36,546 nt of DNA from a bacterium (lineage in GTDB: Bacteria; Cyanobacteriota; Vampirovibrionia; Gastranaerophilales; Gastranaerophilaceae), in contig JAKSUR010000008.1 in the NCBI GenBank assembly GCA_024408765.1, positions 1 to 36,546 on the forward strand, given 5' to 3'. The translations under genes and the position numbers were made by a program. Under the pieces are notes generated by a model. That model had not been told where the DNA came from, made no database searches, and worked only from the letters and a program-made list of their open reading frames with translations. Positions within the stretch are counted from its first letter, which is position 1; every line of letters begins with the position of its first letter. Positions 8,988-35,959 of this stretch are shown piece after piece.

Positions 8988-10037
8988 TTATTGAACTTTA
9001 ATGCTTTCATCCAAGTATTTTATTAACGGATATATAAAGAATTCAATAATTCTGCGTTTTCCGATTTTAATTTCGTTAGTTGTTGTCATACCGACTTTGA
9101 TACTTTGTTCTTTACCTTCAACCATAAGCGTTGAATTTAAAGGTTTTACATACACTTCGTATACTTCACCCAAGCGTTCATCTTTAATACTGTTTGAACC
9201 CACAACCGTAACTTTACCGTTTAAAATTCCATATTTTTGGAAGTTATATGTATCAACTTTTATAGAAACAGGCATGTCCGTTTCAACAAAACCGATATCT
9301 TGATTCATAACAGTGGCTTTAATTTTAATAGGTGTATCATCAGGAATAATTGTCATAAGTTGTTCGGCGGGAGTAACAACGCCTCCAATCGTATGAATCA
9401 TTATTTTATTAACAGTTCCGTTCACAGGGGCTTTAATTATTTGAGTTTGCTTATCAATTTGTTTCATTCTGTTTGATATTTCTGATAAAGAAGCTCTTGC
9501 TTTTGCAATATCATGCGACAGATTGGAAGTTTCGGTTAAAGCTTCATCGTATCTTGACTTTGGAATCAAATCCATCACTTCATTTAATCTTTTCTTTTTA
9601 TCTTGCGCAATAGCTAAGTCATATTGTTTGGATTTTATTGTTTCATTCAAAATTCTTTGTTCTTCCCTTAAATTATTCATTTCCAACTTTGGCTCATCTT
9701 CAGACGGGATAATGACCGCTAAGACTTGCCCTTTTTGAACGTAATCACCTTCAAGCACATTTATTGTTTGAATAACACCTTTATCCAAAGATTGAACGAC
9801 TTTTTCTTCGCCATCAGGAATAATCGTCCCTCTTGCAGTTATAACAATATCTACTTTGCCAAAATACATCCATAATGCCGCAAGCACCAGAAATGACACA
9901 ACCAACCAAAAAATAGTATTCCCAAGAGGGTTCATAGGTCTGTCCTCTATCTCTGCAAGAATTGGTTGGAATTCATGAGCATCATTTTCTTTATACAAAA
10001 TAAAATCTTTAATCTTAGTAATCAGATTTTTAAACAT
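8988..10037 (-). CDS. HlyD-family membrane fusion protein of type I secretion
   Basis: A 349-residue periplasmic adaptor linking the ABC exporter to TolC. The cytoplasmic N-terminus is followed by one membrane helix (about 42-60), then a first half-lipoyl segment (KGVIQTINVLEGDYVQKGQVL, 86-106). Next come a short coiled coil (about 117-196), a second lipoyl half (IKAPVNGTVNKIMIHTIGGVV) and a beta-barrel ending in GMTTTNEIKIGKRRI, the usual HlyD closing signature. At 349 residues it is much shorter than E. coli HlyD (478), mostly because the coiled coil is short. That implies a shorter periplasmic tunnel or a longer TolC partner. Start: AGGAG seven to eight bases upstream, embedded in the stop of the ABC gene. 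Last gene of the operon, with the terminator at 8942-8967 behind it. Confidence 0.9.
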   Translation of the reverse strand: MFKNLITKIKDFILYKENDAHEFQPILAEIEDRPMNPLGNTIFWLVVSFLVLAALWMYFGKVDIVITARGTIIPDGEEKVVQSLDKGVIQTINVLEGDYVQKGQVLAVIIPSEDEPKLEMNNLREEQRILNETIKSKQYDLAIAQDKKKRLNEVMDLIPKSRYDEALTETSNLSHDIAKARASLSEISNRMKQIDKQTQIIKAPVNGTVNKIMIHTIGGVVTPAEQLMTIIPDDTPIKIKATVMNQDIGFVETDMPVSIKVDTYNFQKYGILNGKVTVVGSNSIKDERLGEVYEVYVKPLNSTLMVEGKEQSIKVGMTTTNEIKIGKRRIIEFFIYPLIKYLDESIKVQ

Positions 10038-10047
10038 TCGTCATCTC

Positions 10048-12219
10048 CTAACCCATTTGTGCATTATACAGCGTACGATAGTAACCGTTTTTACTTAATA
10101 ATTCTTCGTGAGAACCGACTTCAACAATTTGTCCGTTGTCAAAACAAACAATTGTATCACAGTCTTTTATTGTTGATAATCTGTGAGCAATAATAATTGT
10201 TGTCCTATCCTTAGAAATCATTCCCAAATTATCTTTAATAATTTTTTCGGATTCATAATCCAATGCAGAGGTAGCTTCATCAAAGATTAAGATTTCAGGG
10301 TTAGAAATCAAAGCTCTTGCAATAGCGACTCTTTGTTTTTGACCGCCTGATAAACTTGAACCTCGTTCTCCGACCTCTGTATCATAGCCTTTAGGAAGTT
10401 TAGAAATAAATTCATGAGCACCTGCAATTTGTGCAACTTGAACTATTGATTCCATTGGCATATTAGGTCTTGGAAGTGCAATATTTTCCTTAATTGTACC
10501 TGAGAACAAGTAGTTTTCTTGTAAAACGATACCAATATGAGTTCTTAACCAGACGGGGTTGATGTTTCTAATATCAATTCCGTCTATAAATATTGTACCT
10601 TCAGTTGCATAATACAAGCGCTGAATAAGCTTTGTAAGAGTTGACTTTCCGCTGCCGCTTCGTCCTACAAAACCTATTTTTTGACCTGCTTTGATATCAA
10701 GATTAATTCTATTGAGAACCATTGGTGCTTCTACGTTGTATCTGAATGAAAGGTTTTCAATTTTTATATCACCTCTGACATTTGACAATGTAATTGCGTT
10801 ATTTGACTGAATTTCAATCGGGTTATTTAAAATATCACCAATTCTGTCAACTGACAACAGTGCTTGTTGAAATTCATTCCACAAATTAACAAGCCTGAGT
10901 GTCGGCCCGCTAAATTGTCCGGTAAACATTTGAAATGCTATTAATTGACCTATTGTAAGTTGATTGTCGATAACCAAACAAACTCCGACATATAAAATAC
11001 AGATTGTCATTAACTTTTGAAGAAGTCCGCAAGTAGCACCGGTAAAATTCCCCATAATTGCAAGATTAAAGCTGGATTTTAAGTATTTACCGAGTTTTTC
11101 TTCCCATTTTCTAAACATAGAACCTTCAATAGCAAGGGATTTGACAGTTTGAATACCTGTAACGGATTCAACCAAATAAGAGTTTTGAATAGCACCCATT
11201 TGAAATTTATCTTCTAATCTTTTGCGAAGTTCAGGTGTAATAAGAAGGTAAATAACAGCAATTATACCTACAAATGTAATTGCAATCATTGTAAGCTTTA
11301 CGCTGTATGCAAGCATGATTCCGATAAACACAAAAGAAAAGAATGTATCAATCAAAACAGAAACAGCTTTATCAGTAATAAATTCTCTGATTCTGTCAAG
11401 TTCTCTGACTCTTGCAATAATGTTACCAACTTGTCTGTTTTCAAAATATACATAGAATAATCTGAATAAATGTTTAAAAAGTTTCGTGCCAAGTTTTGCA
11501 TCAATTTTATTGGTTGTATGAATAAATATATAATTTCTTGATAAGTTTAATAAAAATTCAAACAACGCAACTACAATAAATGCAAAAGCTAATACATTCA
11601 GAGTTGAAATCGTTCTGTGAACAAGAACTTTATCTAAAATAACCTGTGTAAACAAAGGTGTTACAAGTCCAAACAACTGAACAACGAACGAACCCAACAT
11701 AACTTGTCCGACAATTTTTTTGTATTTAAGAATTTCATTAAAAAACCAAATAAATCCGAACTTTGCATCGTCTTCAATAAATTTGTGCTTCATTATAAGC
11801 ATTTTATCTTCGATTTTCTCTTGAAATTCAGATATTTTGTGTAAAACAGGTTGACCTGCCAAAGGCGTTAAAACCAAAACTTTATCTTCCTCAGGCTTAA
11901 TTGCCAAAATAACCTTATAAGTGCCGTCATCTTTCATTTTTACAATCGCAGGCAAAGGATATTTAGGCAAAATATCTTTTATTTTTATATTCTTTATTTT
12001 GATTTTAAATCCTTGACCTCTTGCAATACGCACAAGTTCCTCTTGAGATGTATCGGCTGTTTCAATACCATACTCACGAACAACAGATTGCATATTTATA
12101 TCAACCTGATTCATTCTTGCCGCAATTTCAAGAGAAATTAAACCTGTATTTACATTTGGTTTAACTTTTTCAATGTCTTGTTCTTGTTTTGTTTGTTCTT
12201 TTCTTTCTTCGTTATCCAT
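10048..12219 (-). CDS. Type I secretion ABC exporter with C39-like domain (HlyB type)
   Basis: A 723-residue exporter with fused membrane and ATPase domains. Residues about 22-140 are a C39 peptidase-like domain. Where active peptidases have Cys, the text reads TGLISLEIAAR, so it is a non-cleaving docking domain as in HlyB of RTX systems. The six-helix membrane domain spans about 165-450. The ATPase has Walker A GRSGSGKST (519-527), Q-loop LQENYLF, signature LSGGQ (623-627), Walker B ILIFDEATSALD (643-654) and H-loop His679. It drives one-step export of an unfolded substrate across both membranes. AGGATATATT precedes the ATG. It follows the TolC gene by eight bases and is followed by HlyD ten bases on. 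The likely substrate is the RTX protein upstream. Confidence 0.95.
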   Translation of the reverse strand: MDNEERKEQTKQEQDIEKVKPNVNTGLISLEIAARMNQVDINMQSVVREYGIETADTSQEELVRIARGQGFKIKIKNIKIKDILPKYPLPAIVKMKDDGTYKVILAIKPEEDKVLVLTPLAGQPVLHKISEFQEKIEDKMLIMKHKFIEDDAKFGFIWFFNEILKYKKIVGQVMLGSFVVQLFGLVTPLFTQVILDKVLVHRTISTLNVLAFAFIVVALFEFLLNLSRNYIFIHTTNKIDAKLGTKLFKHLFRLFYVYFENRQVGNIIARVRELDRIREFITDKAVSVLIDTFFSFVFIGIMLAYSVKLTMIAITFVGIIAVIYLLITPELRKRLEDKFQMGAIQNSYLVESVTGIQTVKSLAIEGSMFRKWEEKLGKYLKSSFNLAIMGNFTGATCGLLQKLMTICILYVGVCLVIDNQLTIGQLIAFQMFTGQFSGPTLRLVNLWNEFQQALLSVDRIGDILNNPIEIQSNNAITLSNVRGDIKIENLSFRYNVEAPMVLNRINLDIKAGQKIGFVGRSGSGKSTLTKLIQRLYYATEGTIFIDGIDIRNINPVWLRTHIGIVLQENYLFSGTIKENIALPRPNMPMESIVQVAQIAGAHEFISKLPKGYDTEVGERGSSLSGGQKQRVAIARALISNPEILIFDEATSALDYESEKIIKDNLGMISKDRTTIIIAHRLSTIKDCDTIVCFDNGQIVEVGSHEELLSKNGYYRTLYNAQMG

Positions 12220-12227
12220 AATATATC

Positions 12228-13625
12228 CTAATAAGTTTTTGTAAGCACTTGTAAACTTCGTGCTATTGCAACCGCTGTTGTTTTAAGTTTAAGATTATCT
12301 ATTTTTTCTTCCAAAAGAGCAACTTTTGAATCTTGTAAATCTATTGGAGAAATTATTTTATTTTTAAGCAACTTTGTCATGGAAATTTCTTTTGTCGTTA
12401 ATTCTTTAACCATTGAATTACTTGCCTCTAATTGAGAGTTATTAGTTTTATAATTTGACTTTAAAGTATCTATTTTTTTTGTTAATTCTGCAATAGCTTT
12501 TGCTTTTTCAACTTTAACTTTTTTAACCTCTATTTCTGTTTGCTTAACTTTTGAACGAACTTTTCCGCCATCAAAAGGTGTCATGCTAACAGAAGCTCCT
12601 ATCGCCCAGTTAGAAGGCGAAAAATCGTTAAATCCTTCTGCATATTTTTTAGGATCAGAACCATACATATAATATTTTGAATATAAATTTACCTTCGGAT
12701 AATTTGTTCTTTTTATGGCAAGAAGCTCCAATTGCTTTTTCTTAAGCACATGCTCGTGTATATGATTTGTTACCGATTTTGAATAATCGAATTCATCATT
12801 AATATTGATATTCGGAATTTGTACATCTGCAACTTTCAAATTTTTAATATCATAATCTTCATTTGTAAAAAATGTCATACTAATTAAATTTTCTTCAAGT
12901 AAGCCTTCTAAAACAGCAATTTCTTTTTTAACTCTTGCAACCTTCGCAGTTTGGTCATTCAATTCTATTTTGGAAGCTTCGCCTGCTTTATACAAACGAT
13001 TTTTCATTGTAAGTGTTTTTTGTTCCAAAGCTAATATTTCTTTTTTTAGCTTAATTTGCTCATTTACAATTAATATTCTTGCATAAAGGTCAATAACCGT
13101 AAGCGATAAATCCTGATTTTGCTCTAATTGCAGATAATTTTTTAACTTAACATCTTCTTTTGCCATATCAAGATAACTTTTGCGAACACCAAAATCGTAT
13201 AAATTGTACGTCAGAGTAGCTCCTGCAATGGTTTGAAATCTTGTATACGGATTAACAAATACATCGCCTACTGTAATTGTGGTAAGAGAATCCTTAAAAT
13301 TTTTGTTGTACTCATTACCTGCATATATACCAAATTTAGGTAAATATTCCGCTTTTGCTTCATTAATACCGTATTTTGCAATTACCACATCAAAATCAGC
13401 CAACTTCAAATCGTAAGAATTTGCAATAGCTTTCTCTAATATATTATCCAAGTCTATATTTTTTACTATTTTTTTGTCCTTATTTGTATGTTTTATAATC
13501 ACTTCTTCCGTTTTTACAGACTTATTTTCTTTGTCTATAATTGCTAAAATTGGCAAACAATAATAAGCTTGCAAAAATATTAAACACAAACAAGACAGAA
13601 AAACCTTCTTATCTAAAACATTCAT
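12228..13625 (-). CDS. TolC-family outer membrane channel
   Basis: A 465-residue outer-membrane efflux protein. A hydrophobic N-terminus (8-28) is the likely signal peptide. Residues about 58-260 and 290-465 form the two TolC half-repeats, each with long alternating helices. KAEYLPKFGIYAGNEYN and the later RTNYPKVNLYSKYYMYG are the paired strand-entry motifs. KYGINEAKAEYL and the Lys/Glu-rich heptads before the C-terminus belong to the coiled-coil tunnel. It forms the outer-membrane exit duct of the type I secretion complex. No Shine-Dalgarno sequence is evident before the ATG; a TATATA box lies seven bases upstream with TTGACA further out. First gene of the TolC-ABC-HlyD operon, separated from the RTX gene by a strong terminator. 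Confidence 0.9.
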   Translation of the reverse strand: MNVLDKKVFLSCLCLIFLQAYYCLPILAIIDKENKSVKTEEVIIKHTNKDKKIVKNIDLDNILEKAIANSYDLKLADFDVVIAKYGINEAKAEYLPKFGIYAGNEYNKNFKDSLTTITVGDVFVNPYTRFQTIAGATLTYNLYDFGVRKSYLDMAKEDVKLKNYLQLEQNQDLSLTVIDLYARILIVNEQIKLKKEILALEQKTLTMKNRLYKAGEASKIELNDQTAKVARVKKEIAVLEGLLEENLISMTFFTNEDYDIKNLKVADVQIPNININDEFDYSKSVTNHIHEHVLKKKQLELLAIKRTNYPKVNLYSKYYMYGSDPKKYAEGFNDFSPSNWAIGASVSMTPFDGGKVRSKVKQTEIEVKKVKVEKAKAIAELTKKIDTLKSNYKTNNSQLEASNSMVKELTTKEISMTKLLKNKIISPIDLQDSKVALLEEKIDNLKLKTTAVAIARSLQVLTKTY

Positions 13626-13632
13626 TATAACT

Positions 13633-13664
13633 TATATACTGTCACGAGTACAACCCAATGTCAA
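13633..13664 (-). promoter_or_regulatory. Possible promoter of the secretion operon
   Basis: On the minus strand a perfect TTGACA (13664-13659) and a TATATA box (13638-13633) precede the TolC ATG. The 20-base spacer is longer than usual, which lowers confidence. The position just after the RTX terminator makes biological sense. Confidence 0.3.
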
Positions 13665-13702
13665 ATTTTTATACCCAAACGGCTAGGTAACAAATGAACT
13701 AT

Positions 13703-13738
13703 AAAAAGAGGTTCGGAATAAAATCCGAACCTCTTTTT
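13703..13738 (-). terminator. Strong terminator between RTX gene and secretion operon
   Basis: AAAAAGAGGTTCGGA (13703-13717) and TCCGAACCTCTTTTT (13724-13738) form a perfect 15-pair stem with a six-base loop and a T tail on either strand. It lies 17 bases after the RTX stop codon. It would end RTX transcription or let through only a fraction into the tolC-like gene. Confidence 0.9.
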
Positions 13739-13754
13739 GTATTCAAGTTAGCAA

Positions 13755-16700
13755 CTACGAAACTGTAATCGGTTGGGTTAAATCAAATGAATATGCTTGC
13801 ATCATGCTTGCAATATCGTTTTTATTACCTAAAGCAAGTACATCTATTGAAGAATCATAATTACCGTTATTTTCTAACCAAGCAACCACATTCGATCTAA
13901 TCATATCAATCTTAGCATCTAAATCTTCAACGGCAGTTCCGCCAAAAGAAATACTATCGTCATAGACATTAAAACGCTCGTACGCAACAATACCTTTTAG
14001 TGATTCTAACGTCTTAGGCAGATTAATCTTTTTAGCATTTTGTGCAATATCATTATGTACAAAATAAAATTCATTATACATCTCATTAGCCAAACTTACA
14101 TTAAAGTATAATGTCATTTCTTCATTTGCACCTGCTTCAAAATTTAATACATTATTTCCGTCCCTATCACTGATTATCAGCGAAGTATTCTTATCAAATT
14201 TATTTATATTGTATGTATCACTACCATCACCGCCATAATAGATATCCGCTCCGCCTTTTTCGTAATTAAACACATTATCCTTATCATTAACACCATATAC
14301 AATATCATTCTTTTTGGAGTCCGTTATTATTTGTGCATTTTCACCTTCTAAGAATGCGATATGGTTTGATTTGTTATTTAATTCTATATTATTGACAGAA
14401 CCTCTGTATGCAGTAACGTCATATTTTTGTCTGTTTGTATCTGTTATGGTAAATTTGGACAAATCATTTGTACGAATTGCTAACTCATCAGCAGCCAGAT
14501 TAACATAATTTCTGTTCTGAATAGTAAAATAATTTGTAGTATTTGTTTGATCTTCAAAGTAGAAATTGCGGATTTCATCATCTAAATTAACATTTATTGA
14601 CTTTGAAGTAACCACACCTTCTGCCAAAGAACCATAAGCTTCATCATAACCTTTGGTCATAGTAAGATTTACAGCTTTATCACCCATTAAATAGATTTTA
14701 TCATCACCTTTTGTTCCGACTACTTTACCGCCTTTTTCAGCATACACTTCAACTCTGTCAAAGATATCATTACCTTGAACGGTTACATTTGCCAAGTCAT
14801 TATTTTTACCTAAACCTTTCAGAATATAAGTTCCGTAAGCATTATTAACATTACCAACTTGATGACGTATAACTTGAATATCAGCACCATTACCGGTTTT
14901 CACCACTCGATATTCTGATGTACCAAGGTCATTTAGATTCAAATTAGTACCTTTTGTTAAATTAACGGTATCAGTGCCGTATGAAATATAACCGTCAGCA
15001 TTTGTATTGGCAACAATCTCATTATTACCTAATCCGATAGTTATTTTATCATTATATCTTGAACCGATTACCGTATCATTACCTGTGCCGGTTGAGATTG
15101 AAACAGCTTTTTGCGCACTTCTTGCATCAATAAGTTCATTCAACTTAGTACCTTTATAACCTTTTTGTGCATCTACATAGTATTCAAAATCGTTTAAACT
15201 AATAGGAGTGCTTGTTGTTGCAATAAACGCAGTTGCATTAGTATTATTAGAAGCAAAATTTTTAAGTGTAAGTGTTCCGCCATCTGTATCACCATAATCA
15301 TTGGCTCTGTGTAAAATTACATCATTGCCTTTTAGTTCGACAAGGTATTTACCCTTTAGTCCTTCACCCTGACCTATGCCTATGTTTAAATCGTATGAAC
15401 CTTCCGTTACATAATTTTTATCATAGAAATCTGAAATAGTAAGTTGTTCACCTTTTGTAAACTTAACCGTATCATCACCTACATTTGCCAGCCTTCCTAA
15501 AGCCTCAACGTGATCTTTATCAAAACTGTAACCACTGCTTGGTTCATAATTTGTATAATTTGCTTCGTTATATCTGATTTCATTAATACCTGCGCCTAAT
15601 TGATAAGTATCATTACCGTTTGAAGCATAAGATATATCATTTCCGGAACCGGCTTTAACATTGTCTTTAAAATCAGGATTAACCCATTCCCACTTAGATT
15701 CACTTTCATTATAATAACGACCTTGATTTGTTATAATTGTGTTATTACCTTCTCCTGCATTAACCGTTACGCCTTTTGAAGAATAATTGCCGTCAACAAC
15801 TTCATTTAAAGCACTTCCTGTATATCTTCCCGATTTGTAGAGATTTTCATCTTGTTTATAATTTTCAAAATAAACATCTTTGAGCTTTACACTACCTCTT
15901 TCACCTAGTGAATAATCATAGTATTCATACATAACATCATCATTAGGTTTCTTGGCAAAATTAGCGATATTAAGTTCACCTGTTGCTTCACTGCTACTAT
16001 TATATTTAGCATAATAAAGATTGTCGTGTTCAGGAGTTGAACCGGAAGCTTGGCTTGATGAAGCATACAAAAATTTTGCATCAGATGCTTTGCCGTTATA
16101 TGCGTGGACAGCAGAATCAATCTTTCTCTCGCCGTTTTCATAATATACATAGCCCAAATTATATCTTGATACTAAGGAACCTTTAGCAATGTATGTATAA
16201 CCGCCGTAAGCATTACCAATATATATATTGTCTAATTTATTCATTTCCGTAGCAGTATCATCAATTGTTGAATTTTCAGGGCTATCTGTGAATAAATAAC
16301 CAATTAATGCATTACGATCGGTTTCTGAAACAAGATTAAAATTATTACCGACCTTTTTGTATAGCAAACTTAATGAACCCACAGTACCCGTATATGGTGC
16401 ATCTGCTCCGTTATTTAATTTGTAGAAATAGTTTTGACCTGCTGTACCTGCCAGATGCCAAGCATCACTTCCCACATATTTAACATAAAGCGTTTTGCCG
16501 TTATTAGCCATTGTTACATCCAGAGCGCTTCCTGTAATTTCTATATAGTCAGTATCATAATAGGCAAAATTCGTGATATCGCCATAAAGACTATAATCAC
16601 CGGTTGAAGCATTCAATGTATAAACATTACCGGCATCTAAAATTTGTCGCATAGTAATATCGCTTGCGGCAGTAAAACTGTAATAATCAGTAGATGCTGC

Positions 16701-17789
16701 TAAAAAATTAATATTACGACTTGGAGTCATACTATATCTATCAGTACCAATACCAACTTCATTTGCCGTATTCAATGTCAACTGATAGTACGGAGGAATA
16801 GTTCCTGCCACATCAGAAATAGCACCTGTATCACTATTTATTGATTTGCCGGATTCTGAAACTTTTTTTTCTGTTTCGGGAATTTCAACTATATAATAAG
16901 TTGTACCTCTATCTGAGTAATCAAATGTATCGGTTTCATTATTATAATAACCGCCGGTTGTGCTATTTACATCTAATTCTGCACCTTTTGTTTCGTGCCA
17001 AGTTTCAACAAAAGCATTTTTACCGTCAGTATAAAATTCTTCATAAGAATGTTTTGGCCCTGAAATGTTTTTAATGGTTAAGTATTCACCATTTGTAAGT
17101 TTGTATGTGTCAGAACCGTATAATTCATTATTTTTGTTAATTAATAAAAGGTTTTCGCCTTGACCTCCCGTAATTGTATCATCAGCAACAGATCCAAGAA
17201 TATTATCGTTACCAATACCTGCATTAATAGTAGTTTTTTTTACTACCTTTCCTTTTGTATCAACTAATGAACCATTCACTAATTCAAATTCTGATAAATC
17301 AATATTATCATTTACATTTGTGCCATTAATTTTGGTGGTAGTAATATCTGCTTTTGTATGATAAGTGGAAAGATTATAAGCATTGATTTCACTTCTGTTA
17401 TACACAAGTCCGTCATTATAAATATCTTTTGAAACAAAGAGTTCCAAATCATCCATGCCTGAGCCTAAATATCTAAACTTGCTTGTACCGCTTTGTTTTA
17501 CAAAATCTTTAACATAAACTTTATTATCCGAGCCTTTCAAATTAATAACCAAATCATAACCTTGAACGTCATAAGGATAACTTGGATCTGTCGAAACAAA
17601 ACTTGTATCAATAATGTCACCGTATGAAGCACCTGCAATACCTTCACAACCCCTAACAGTAATTTGTTCTCCCAATGAATTTGTATACGTTGCATTTCCC
17701 TTTGAATCAACATACACATCAGAATTAATGTCATAAAAATCAATCATAGTCTTTGGATTCACTTTTTTTTCTAATAAATCATCCATCAT
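13755..17789 (-). CDS. Large RTX-like calcium-repeat protein, probable type I secretion substrate
   Basis: A 1344-residue acidic, Asn/Asp/Gly/Tyr-rich protein with almost no Cys and no N-terminal signal peptide, as expected for type I secretion. Hemolysin-type nonapeptide repeats (GGxGxDxxx-like) occur in separated patches, not one block. They lie near 188-216 (AGIGNDNILG, ADDTITGGQG), 680 (AGEGNNTII), 715-730 (AGSGNDISYA), 900-925 (GTGNDTVIG, YNDKITIG), 1025 (GTKGDDKIY) and 1185 (GGDGSDTYNI). Between them are beta-rich stretches resembling repeats such as FTKGEQLTISDF. The repeats bind calcium outside the cell and drive folding. The last residues (DLTQPITVS) may belong to the C-terminal export signal. 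I see no lipase, protease or adenylate cyclase domain, so it may be an adhesin or surface-layer protein. GAAAGGGA precedes the paired ATGs. The exporter genes follow directly. Confidence 0.85.
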   Translation of the reverse strand: MMDDLLEKKVNPKTMIDFYDINSDVYVDSKGNATYTNSLGEQITVRGCEGIAGASYGDIIDTSFVSTDPSYPYDVQGYDLVINLKGSDNKVYVKDFVKQSGTSKFRYLGSGMDDLELFVSKDIYNDGLVYNRSEINAYNLSTYHTKADITTTKINGTNVNDNIDLSEFELVNGSLVDTKGKVVKKTTINAGIGNDNILGSVADDTITGGQGENLLLINKNNELYGSDTYKLTNGEYLTIKNISGPKHSYEEFYTDGKNAFVETWHETKGAELDVNSTTGGYYNNETDTFDYSDRGTTYYIVEIPETEKKVSESGKSINSDTGAISDVAGTIPPYYQLTLNTANEVGIGTDRYSMTPSRNINFLAASTDYYSFTAASDITMRQILDAGNVYTLNASTGDYSLYGDITNFAYYDTDYIEITGSALDVTMANNGKTLYVKYVGSDAWHLAGTAGQNYFYKLNNGADAPYTGTVGSLSLLYKKVGNNFNLVSETDRNALIGYLFTDSPENSTIDDTATEMNKLDNIYIGNAYGGYTYIAKGSLVSRYNLGYVYYENGERKIDSAVHAYNGKASDAKFLYASSSQASGSTPEHDNLYYAKYNSSSEATGELNIANFAKKPNDDVMYEYYDYSLGERGSVKLKDVYFENYKQDENLYKSGRYTGSALNEVVDGNYSSKGVTVNAGEGNNTIITNQGRYYNESESKWEWVNPDFKDNVKAGSGNDISYASNGNDTYQLGAGINEIRYNEANYTNYEPSSGYSFDKDHVEALGRLANVGDDTVKFTKGEQLTISDFYDKNYVTEGSYDLNIGIGQGEGLKGKYLVELKGNDVILHRANDYGDTDGGTLTLKNFASNNTNATAFIATTSTPISLNDFEYYVDAQKGYKGTKLNELIDARSAQKAVSISTGTGNDTVIGSRYNDKITIGLGNNEIVANTNADGYISYGTDTVNLTKGTNLNLNDLGTSEYRVVKTGNGADIQVIRHQVGNVNNAYGTYILKGLGKNNDLANVTVQGNDIFDRVEVYAEKGGKVVGTKGDDKIYLMGDKAVNLTMTKGYDEAYGSLAEGVVTSKSINVNLDDEIRNFYFEDQTNTTNYFTIQNRNYVNLAADELAIRTNDLSKFTITDTNRQKYDVTAYRGSVNNIELNNKSNHIAFLEGENAQIITDSKKNDIVYGVNDKDNVFNYEKGGADIYYGGDGSDTYNINKFDKNTSLIISDRDGNNVLNFEAGANEEMTLYFNVSLANEMYNEFYFVHNDIAQNAKKINLPKTLESLKGIVAYERFNVYDDSISFGGTAVEDLDAKIDMIRSNVVAWLENNGNYDSSIDVLALGNKNDIASMMQAYSFDLTQPITVS

Positions 17790-34309: not shown

Positions 34310-34443
34310 AACATTCTCCAACAACAAGTGTACATTAAAAAAAAAAATTTAACAAACTAAACCCATTTTTACAAAGAAAAATCAAAACACTTGAAATAAA
34401 AATATATTTATGACAAAATTGAAAACGACATTAAGATTAATAT

Positions 34444-34517
34444 GGCTGAGTAGCTCAGTTGGTGAGAGCGTGCGGCTCATACCCGCAAGGTCGACGGTTC
34501 GAATCCATCCTCAGCTA
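34444..34517 (+). tRNA. tRNA-Met (CAT anticodon), elongator-like
   Basis: A 74-base cloverleaf. The acceptor is GGCTGAG with CTCAGCT (first pair G-T), D stem GCTC/GAGC, anticodon stem TGCGG/CCGCA around the loop CTCATAC with CAT at 34478-34480. T stem GACGG/CCATC has a C-A mismatch in the middle (34495 with 34507), T loop TTCGAAT, and A as discriminator. No CCA is encoded. The pair C11-G24 and the lack of three G-C pairs at the bottom of the anticodon stem speak against the initiator. It could be the tRNA-Ile whose CAT is modified to lysidine; Met is the default call. Confidence 0.9.
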
Positions 34518-34600
34518 TTTTTTGTGCTTTTGCGGGTTATTCGCCACACGCAGGTTTTACAAACCTCATTCGAGCTGTAATTTAACACCTCAGTTGCGTT

Positions 34601-34909: not shown

Positions 34910-35959
34910 ATGAATTTATCAATAAATACATATTGTCCAATGTCAATATATAAAAAAAATTGTATGACTGATGCTATTACTTTTAAATCTGTCAATAAAA
35001 AAGTAATAAGCAAAATGAATGACAAAGTAAAATCTAAAAAAACAAGTGCTTTTATTTCAACAATTACAACGGGAATACTATCTTTTATCTATCTAAAGAC
35101 AAAAGAAAATTTTTGGAAACAATGTGAAGAAAGATTTAATGAAGACGAGATGGCTTGGCTTAAAGAAGCAGATAAGAAAATTATTGCAAACATTCAAAAA
35201 AGAGATTTATTAAATAAACGTGATGCCAATGGTAAGTTATTAAGTTGTATTGATATTAAACATATAGCACAATTAGATAAAAATGACTTTAGTAATATAG
35301 ATAAAAGAGATTTATGGAGTAAAACCAATATGTTTAAGGGCACCTCTATTGGTTATGCTATATCTACATATGCACGGTATAGTGATGAGCGGTATGCAAA
35401 TATTGAAAGAAGAGATTTGTGGCATAAAACAAAATCAGATGGACAGCCGCTTAATGCACATGAGATTGATATACTAATCCATTTAGCAGATGATGAAACT
35501 TTTGCAAATATTGAAAAAAGAGATTTGTGGCATAAGAATTTATGTGTGCAAAGCATGGTGACTTTAGGACGTTTGAATGATGAAGAATACGAGCGTCTAG
35601 ACACAAGAAAATTATGGGATTTTATTGAAGAAGAAGGAACCGGTACTGTAGCAATACTTGCAAACCAGGATGACAAAACGTACAATAAAATTATTGAATT
35701 AGACTTATTAAATAAGGAAGATGCTAATGGTATGACGTTTCCAACAGGGAATCTTGTAAAATTGGCAAAACTTGATGACAAAATTCATAATAACATTGAA
35801 AAAAGAAACTTGTGGATAAAACGTAACATTAGTAATAGTAGGTGTTTGACAATACTTGAGATTATATCTTATGCAAAATTAGATGATATGGAATATGAAG
35901 AAGCAAAAAAAAACTTATGTGAATTTAAAATAGATTTTTCTAAGAGTTTTATGTGCTAA
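34910..35959 (+). CDS. Tandem KRDLW-repeat protein with membrane anchor
   Basis: A 349-residue protein of unknown function. The N-terminal 44 residues contain AITFKS (22-27), a short motif like those at the N-termini of other proteins here. A membrane helix (about 45-63) follows. Residues about 80-345 are eight tandem units of 30-37 residues with the core LxxLDDxxYxNIEKRDLWxK. Good copies are SNIDKRDLWSK, ANIERRDLWHK, ANIEKRDLWHK and NNIEKRNLWIK; weaker ones are RLDTRKLWDF and KIIELDLLNK. The pattern suggests a helical solenoid for protein binding. No catalytic motif is present. AGGG lies ten bases before the ATG. The gene is solitary, between the tRNA-linked patch and a probable small RNA. 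Confidence 0.7.
   Translation: MNLSINTYCPMSIYKKNCMTDAITFKSVNKKVISKMNDKVKSKKTSAFISTITTGILSFIYLKTKENFWKQCEERFNEDEMAWLKEADKKIIANIQKRDLLNKRDANGKLLSCIDIKHIAQLDKNDFSNIDKRDLWSKTNMFKGTSIGYAISTYARYSDERYANIERRDLWHKTKSDGQPLNAHEIDILIHLADDETFANIEKRDLWHKNLCVQSMVTLGRLNDEEYERLDTRKLWDFIEEEGTGTVAILANQDDKTYNKIIELDLLNKEDANGMTFPTGNLVKLAKLDDKIHNNIEKRNLWIKRNISNSRCLTILEIISYAKLDDMEYEEAKKNLCEFKIDFSKSFMC

What the first reader, a model, noticed from the sequence alone, without database searches (positions are those of the whole stretch)
35150..35945. New tandem repeat: LxxLDDxxYxNIEKRDLWxK
Eight units of 30-37 residues form the body of a membrane-anchored protein. The core NIEKRDLWxK is strongly kept while linkers vary, and some units carry an inserted DANGKxL phrase. 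I know no repeat family with this signature. A solenoid displayed from a membrane anchor could be a binding surface or cell-contact protein.
Basis: partly seen in the sequence, partly recalled or inferred. Interest (0 to 1): 0.6.

Follow-up and report, generated by a model that had tools for sequence, protein, structure and literature searches.

The report
New helical repeat in gut bacteria
A protein of a gut bacterium (Candidatus Gastranaerophilales) is built from eight copies of a ~35-residue unit that no repeat library used here knows; the units are predicted to stack into a helical rod, and the same unit forms the middle of much larger enzyme-bearing proteins in related bacteria, so this one is probably a membrane-held scaffold for binding other proteins.

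Summary
The repeat is real. ORF 34910..35959 (+, 349 aa) holds eight units of about 30-36 aa. A profile built without the window's units scores it 36.2 bits; the best of 2000 shuffles scores 10.8. The units match no Pfam, NCBIfam or PDB sequence family. AlphaFold2 gives a confident two-helix solenoid (pLDDT 84.7). It is not a one-off: the same unit occurs in about 30 sampled proteins, all in one bacterial family (Candidatus Gastranaerophilales), mostly giant proteins (1300-5600 aa) where it precedes a shared HD-type domain (17 of 27), an undescribed 'GCC' domain (6) or a zinc-metallopeptidase-like domain (3). The window protein is a rare stand-alone form: basic N-terminus, one borderline membrane segment, eight units, no enzyme.

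Nearest solved structures are TAL-effector repeats (Foldseek E 1.2e-4 for a 14-unit relative, 0.38 for the window protein), but only local geometry matches (TM 0.2). Sequence, variable-residue pattern and charge do not match, so DNA binding is unlikely. Best reading: a new lineage-restricted alpha-solenoid family; this member is a membrane-tethered protein-binding scaffold (binding inferred, not shown). 'Inserted DANGKxL' is the normal inter-helix loop. Cell-contact function is untested.

The parts
34910..35959 (+). stand-alone repeat protein, 349 aa
   Evidence: ORF with ATG start; one copy in its genome
34976..34990 (+). N-terminal ITFKS motif (residues 23-27), a possible lineage-typical N-terminal tag
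   Evidence: pattern seen in 7 of 27 repeat carriers against 16 of 296 proteins of a relative's contig, Fisher p 0.0013; several carriers are homologous, so weak
34910..35044 (+). basic N-terminal region, residues 1-45, net charge +8
35045..35101 (+). probable single membrane segment SAFISTITTGILSFIYLKT (residues 46-64)
   Evidence: Kyte-Doolittle 1.17 over 19 residues, borderline; part of one long helix 43-75 in the model
35171..35269 (+). repeat unit 1
   Evidence: HMM 32.8 bits
35273..35374 (+). repeat unit 2
   Evidence: HMM 30.5 bits
35378..35479 (+). repeat unit 3
   Evidence: HMM 35.6 bits
35486..35572 (+). repeat unit 4, short inter-helix loop
   Evidence: HMM 20.3 bits on its first half; helices 195-203 and 213-220 in the model
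35573..35665 (+). repeat unit 5, short inter-helix loop
   Evidence: HMM 12.0 bits on its first half; helices in the model
35666..35767 (+). repeat unit 6
   Evidence: HMM 26.9 bits
35771..35875 (+). repeat unit 7
   Evidence: HMM 22.5 bits
35879..35950 (+). repeat unit 8, degenerate and cut short by the C-terminus
   Evidence: HMM 3.8 bits, marginal; helix 326-337 in the model
34443..34518 (+). tRNA-Met (CAT) upstream; the place beside the conserved glycosyltransferase gene is variable between species
   Evidence: comparison of relatives

Best explanation
The protein is a stand-alone member of a new, lineage-restricted alpha-solenoid repeat family of Candidatus Gastranaerophilales. Each unit, consensus LSDEEFENIKKRGLLNLKDIKNRQFSGYDISELAKL, gives a helix (SDEEFENIKKR), a short turn and loop that often carries a small hairpin (DANGK), and a second helix (GYDISELAK) (predicted). 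Eight units stack into a rod (predicted). A basic N-terminus and one hydrophobic segment probably tie the rod to the inner membrane with the repeats on the far side (inferred from the positive-inside rule). In related bacteria the same repeat sits in giant proteins before a conserved HD-type domain, a 'GCC' domain or a metallopeptidase-like domain (shown). The most economical common function is therefore a protein-binding or spacer arm; the window protein is a tethered scaffold that captures a protein partner (inferred; the partner is unknown).
For: Repeats beyond chance. Confident solenoid model of this protein, pLDDT 84.7 with most of the repeat tract above 90, replicated on an independent 14-unit tract, pLDDT 86.7. 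Family found in 29 of 383 family genomes, 23 of 386 phylum genomes and 17 of 289 class genomes, every hit in the window's own family. Carriers: 17 of 27 with a shared HD-type C-terminal domain, 6 with the GCC domain (one has both), 3 with only an HExxH domain. The C-terminal domain resembles the HD region of GlnD in NCBIfam and PF01966. Stand-alone forms exist in two more genomes: G010 with a membrane segment and G192 without one. The tract is acidic to neutral in all eight proteins measured.
Against: No partner, ligand or localisation is known; binding is inferred only from the solenoid fold. The hydrophobic segment of the window protein is below the usual cut-off. Only two of 65 genomes of the genus have a recognisable protein of this kind, so it is not a core function. 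The gene lies near the contig end (contig = window), so its 3' neighbours are unknown.
Confidence: 0.55

Rival explanations
1. It is a fragment or leftover of a giant repeat protein that has lost its enzyme part.
For: Most carriers are giant and end in an enzyme-like domain; the last unit is degenerate; the gene is in a variable place beside a tRNA.
Against: The ORF is intact, has its own start and N-terminus, and a similar short form with a membrane segment exists in G010 and a third, without one, in G192. No second piece was seen in the remaining 590 bases, and there is no other match in the genome.
Confidence: 0.17
2. It is an antagonist or decoy (immunity-like) partner of the giant HD-bearing repeat proteins of neighbours, binding them through repeat-repeat packing.
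For: Stand-alone copy of the very repeat found in enzyme-bearing giants of the same bacterial family, probably membrane-tethered, sporadic among species.
Against: No giant repeat protein is found in the window's own genome, no gene pairing was seen, and no binding data exist.
Confidence: 0.1
3. It is a nucleic-acid-binding solenoid that works like TAL-effector or mTERF repeats.
For: TAL-effector DNA-binding domains are the top structural matches of both models (Foldseek E 0.38 and 1.2e-4); the unit is 33-36 aa long; mTERF structures also appear.
Against: Only local geometry matches (TM about 0.2, rmsd over 10 A, Z 3-6). No sequence match. No pair of hypervariable residues on an otherwise constant unit; position 12 is on the contrary a well-kept Arg. 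Tracts are acidic or neutral. The window protein seems to be at the membrane.
Confidence: 0.07
4. It is a surface or adhesion protein used in cell contact.
For: Probable membrane anchor, elongated repeat tract.
Against: No known cell-wall, adhesin or outer-membrane domain matched; the orientation suggests the periplasm, not the cell surface; most relatives are enzyme-bearing.
Confidence: 0.11

Closest known systems
TAL-effector (TALE) and TALE-like (BurrH) repeats
   Same: Two helices per unit, 33-36 aa period, long regular solenoid; top Foldseek matches for both models.
   Different: No sequence similarity found; no repeat-variable di-residue pattern; acidic; the overall superhelix does not match (TM about 0.2); different neighbours (HD, metallopeptidase, GCC domains).
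mTERF repeats
   Same: About 30-35 aa helical unit; appears lower in the structural lists.
   Different: No sequence match; weak Z (3-4); mTERF proteins are organellar nucleic-acid binders.
Designed alpha/alpha toroids and other designed helical repeats (e.g. 5byo, 8v2d)
   Same: Similar two-helix packing, best Z among repeat proteins (5.8 over 203 residues; 7.4 over 251 residues).
   Different: Man-made, no evolutionary relation.
Sel1, TPR, ankyrin, HEAT
   Same: General alpha-solenoid idea: stacked helix pairs that bind proteins.
   Different: No Pfam match at E<=10 and none among the listed structural rows.

Membership tests
TAL-effector repeats (PF03377) | sequence profile match | tested here: not met
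   No Pfam match at E<=10 for the window protein, G010, L037 or L042 tracts; no TALE chain in profile searches of PDB sequences at E<=10
TAL-effector repeats (PF03377) | near-identical 34-aa units that vary at two positions (12, 13) | tested here: not met
   Units vary at most positions; position 12 is a well-kept Arg (78 of 84 units with a residue there)
TAL-effector repeats (PF03377) | two-helix unit with matching local geometry | tested here: inconclusive
   Foldseek E 1.2e-4, probability 1.00, TM 0.20 for the L042 tract; E 0.38 for the window protein; Z 5.6 or less. Handedness could not be measured
TAL-effector repeats (PF03377) | sequence-specific DNA binding | not testable with these tools
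   Net charge negative or zero in all tracts argues against it
mTERF | sequence profile match | tested here: not met
   No Pfam match at E<=10
Ankyrin / Sel1 / HEAT / TPR repeats | sequence profile match | tested here: not met
   No Pfam match at E<=10
Ankyrin / Sel1 / HEAT / TPR repeats | fold | tested here: inconclusive
   Not among the listed structural matches, which does not exclude them
The Gastranaerophilales repeat family defined here | 33-36 aa unit LSDEEFENIKKRGLL...FSGYDISELAKL in tandem | tested here: met
   Profile without window units: 36.2 bits against a shuffle maximum of 10.8; eight units
Single-pass membrane proteins | hydrophobic segment of about 19 residues | tested here: inconclusive
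   Kyte-Doolittle 1.17, borderline; 1.83 in the G010 homologue

The most novel reading that the evidence does not exclude
A third natural lineage of TALE/mTERF-type two-helix solenoid, evolved inside one family of gut bacteria as the recognition arm of a large set of secreted enzyme-bearing proteins (HD, metallopeptidase, GCC domain), with stand-alone membrane-tethered versions acting as their receptors, scaffolds or antagonists.
Probability: 0.15. Interest if true: 0.7.

Novelty: new variant of a known kind. Interest (0 to 1): 0.45.

Why it matters
The giant proteins of Candidatus Gastranaerophilales found here are almost entirely without a Pfam match. A repeat profile that finds them, together with the two recurrent C-terminal domains, gives a handle on a large, lineage-specific set of modular proteins in common but poorly studied gut bacteria. 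If the local likeness to TAL-effector repeats is real, it adds a natural, acidic, probably protein-binding solenoid of that geometry, useful for protein design.

Tried and rejected
Scan of the named genome collection with the window protein found nothing, and with the L037 tract only its own record. Phage records, plasmids and viral contigs gave no relatives, so a mobile-element or phage origin has no support. Known repeat families were not matched. Viral structures gave only chance matches. Matches to ABC transporters and other long helices concern only residues 1-74 (the N-terminal helices) and were set aside. The idea of a strict N-terminal sorting motif was tested and is weak genome-wide: 16 of 296 N-termini against 46 of 1467 internal stretches. 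Literature searches for this repeat in Gastranaerophilales found nothing relevant.

Full report
What is there. The window is one whole contig (G000:C92) of a 1.58 Mb, 113-contig genome. ORF 34910..35959 (+) encodes 349 aa. Self-comparison shows strong similarity at offsets of 35-36 residues and multiples. An HMM iterated over relatives finds eight units; one built only from units of other proteins gives 36.2 bits, against 10.8 for the best of 2000 shuffles.

Who carries it. The genome has a single copy, and only one other of 65 genomes of the genus gives a match with the window protein as query, G010, with a 332-aa protein of five very regular units. Using that protein as query in 383 genomes of the same family gives 29 positives, mostly inside very large ORFs. 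Phylum-wide (386 genomes, 142 genera) and class-wide (289 genomes, 89 genera) searches give hits only in the same family. One carrier is in a named record, a Candidatus Gastranaerophilales MAG, which fixes the group. No relatives were found among phages, plasmids or viral contigs.

What it is joined to. Of 27 carrier ORFs, 17 have a shared C-terminal domain (190-710 aa aligned, 26-48% identity to the L037 copy) that contains an HD motif; 6 share another domain with a GNHxxCCTxVG core ('GCC'), one protein having both; three further ones end in an HExxH domain, for which one member gave a weak match to PF07737 (E 1.8e-4, below the curated cut-off). The HD region resembles the HD part of GlnD (E 6.6e-8). 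Several carriers begin with a module shared by L044, L046, L047, L048 and L049. Stand-alone forms are the window protein, G010 and a 347-aa ORF of G192, the last without a membrane segment. In G010 the segment behind the membrane stretch (MTQDVxFLLNNTLAGS) also occurs at the start of two other proteins that carry RHS-like repeats instead, so the parts appear to be shuffled.

Structure. AlphaFold2 on a nine-row alignment gives pLDDT 84.7, mostly above 90 from residue 71 to 300: two helices of 8-10 residues per unit, with a small strand pair around the DANG loop in the units that have it. An independent tract of 14 units from L042 gives 86.7. For both, Foldseek ranks TAL-effector repeat domains first: E 0.38 for the window protein and 1.2e-4 with probability 1.00 for L042. 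Global agreement is poor (TM 0.2; best Z for any repeat protein 5.8 and 7.4, both to designed repeats), so I read this as similar packing of neighbouring helices, not as the same superhelix. According to a review, TALE repeats are left-handed two-helix bundles of 34 residues forming a right-handed superhelix (PMC11514114); I could not measure handedness here.

Is it a TALE-like DNA binder? Sequence profiles do not match. TALE units are near-identical with two variable residues (PMC11514114); here most positions vary and the Arg at position 12 is among the best-kept residues. All eight tracts measured are acidic or neutral. Hence it may share geometry but is not shown to be a member, and DNA binding is unlikely.

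How it most likely works. Shown: tandem units, lineage restriction within the genomes searched, fusion to enzyme-like domains. Predicted: solenoid. Inferred: membrane tether (borderline hydrophobicity, +8 charge before it), periplasmic orientation (positive-inside rule, general knowledge), protein binding. A rod of helix pairs used again and again next to different enzymes, and also alone at the membrane, is best explained as a protein-binding or spacing arm. I put 0.55 on this reading; remnant of a giant protein 0.17; cell-contact 0.11; antagonist of the giants 0.10; nucleic-acid binding 0.07.

Setting of the gene. The neighbouring glycosyltransferase gene is conserved in 52 of 63 genomes of the genus, but what follows it differs from species to species, so the repeat gene sits in a variable place beside a tRNA-Met. 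The units of the window protein are old (no DNA-level tandem array), whereas L042 has 99-bp copies with 97% matches, so the family is still duplicating units elsewhere.

Novelty. A new repeat family within the known class of alpha-solenoids, without a match in the Pfam and NCBIfam versions held here; it is not a new kind of system.

Noticed in passing
window 8988-17789: A type I secretion locus: HlyD-like (8991-10037), C39-peptidase ABC transporter (10051-12219), outer-membrane efflux protein (12231-13625) and a 1344-aa protein with an RTX nonapeptide match, probably its cargo.
   Followed up: partly
L052:6264-14174 residues 2251-2637; also L050, L051, L054, L103, L104: A recurrent domain with core LFLGNHxxCCTxVG...AAP, 25-69% identical among giant proteins, without any Pfam match; possibly a cysteine enzyme.
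   Followed up: partly
L037:5419-9897 residues 852-1493 and 16 other carriers: A shared C-terminal domain with GlnD-like HD residues in giant Gastranaerophilales proteins.
   Followed up: partly
L098:1498-2499, L099:1840-2925, L004:5600-6598: A module MTQDVxFLLNNTLAGS shared by three proteins of one genome, joined either to RHS-like repeats or to the repeat described here.
   Followed up: partly
window 34976-34990; L040, L044, L046, L047, L055, L133 N-termini; L078:1303-2481: Many proteins near these loci have a short N-terminal motif such as ISFKG, ITFKS or PAFRG within 60 residues of the start; enriched in repeat carriers (7 of 27 against 16 of 296, p 0.0013) but weak genome-wide. Possible sorting tag.
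   Followed up: partly
L105:875-1807: An ADP-ribosyltransferase exoenzyme-like protein (PF03496, E 6.7e-15) two genes away from a repeat carrier.
   Followed up: no
L061:895-2814, L100, L101, L102: Proteins of about 650 aa in one genus with one to four of these repeat units and a C-terminal HExxH metallopeptidase-like domain (PF07737, below the cut-off).
   Followed up: partly
L042:6296-6639: 99-bp in-frame tandem copies, 97% matches over 2.5 copies, inside the repeat tract: recent unit duplication.
   Followed up: no
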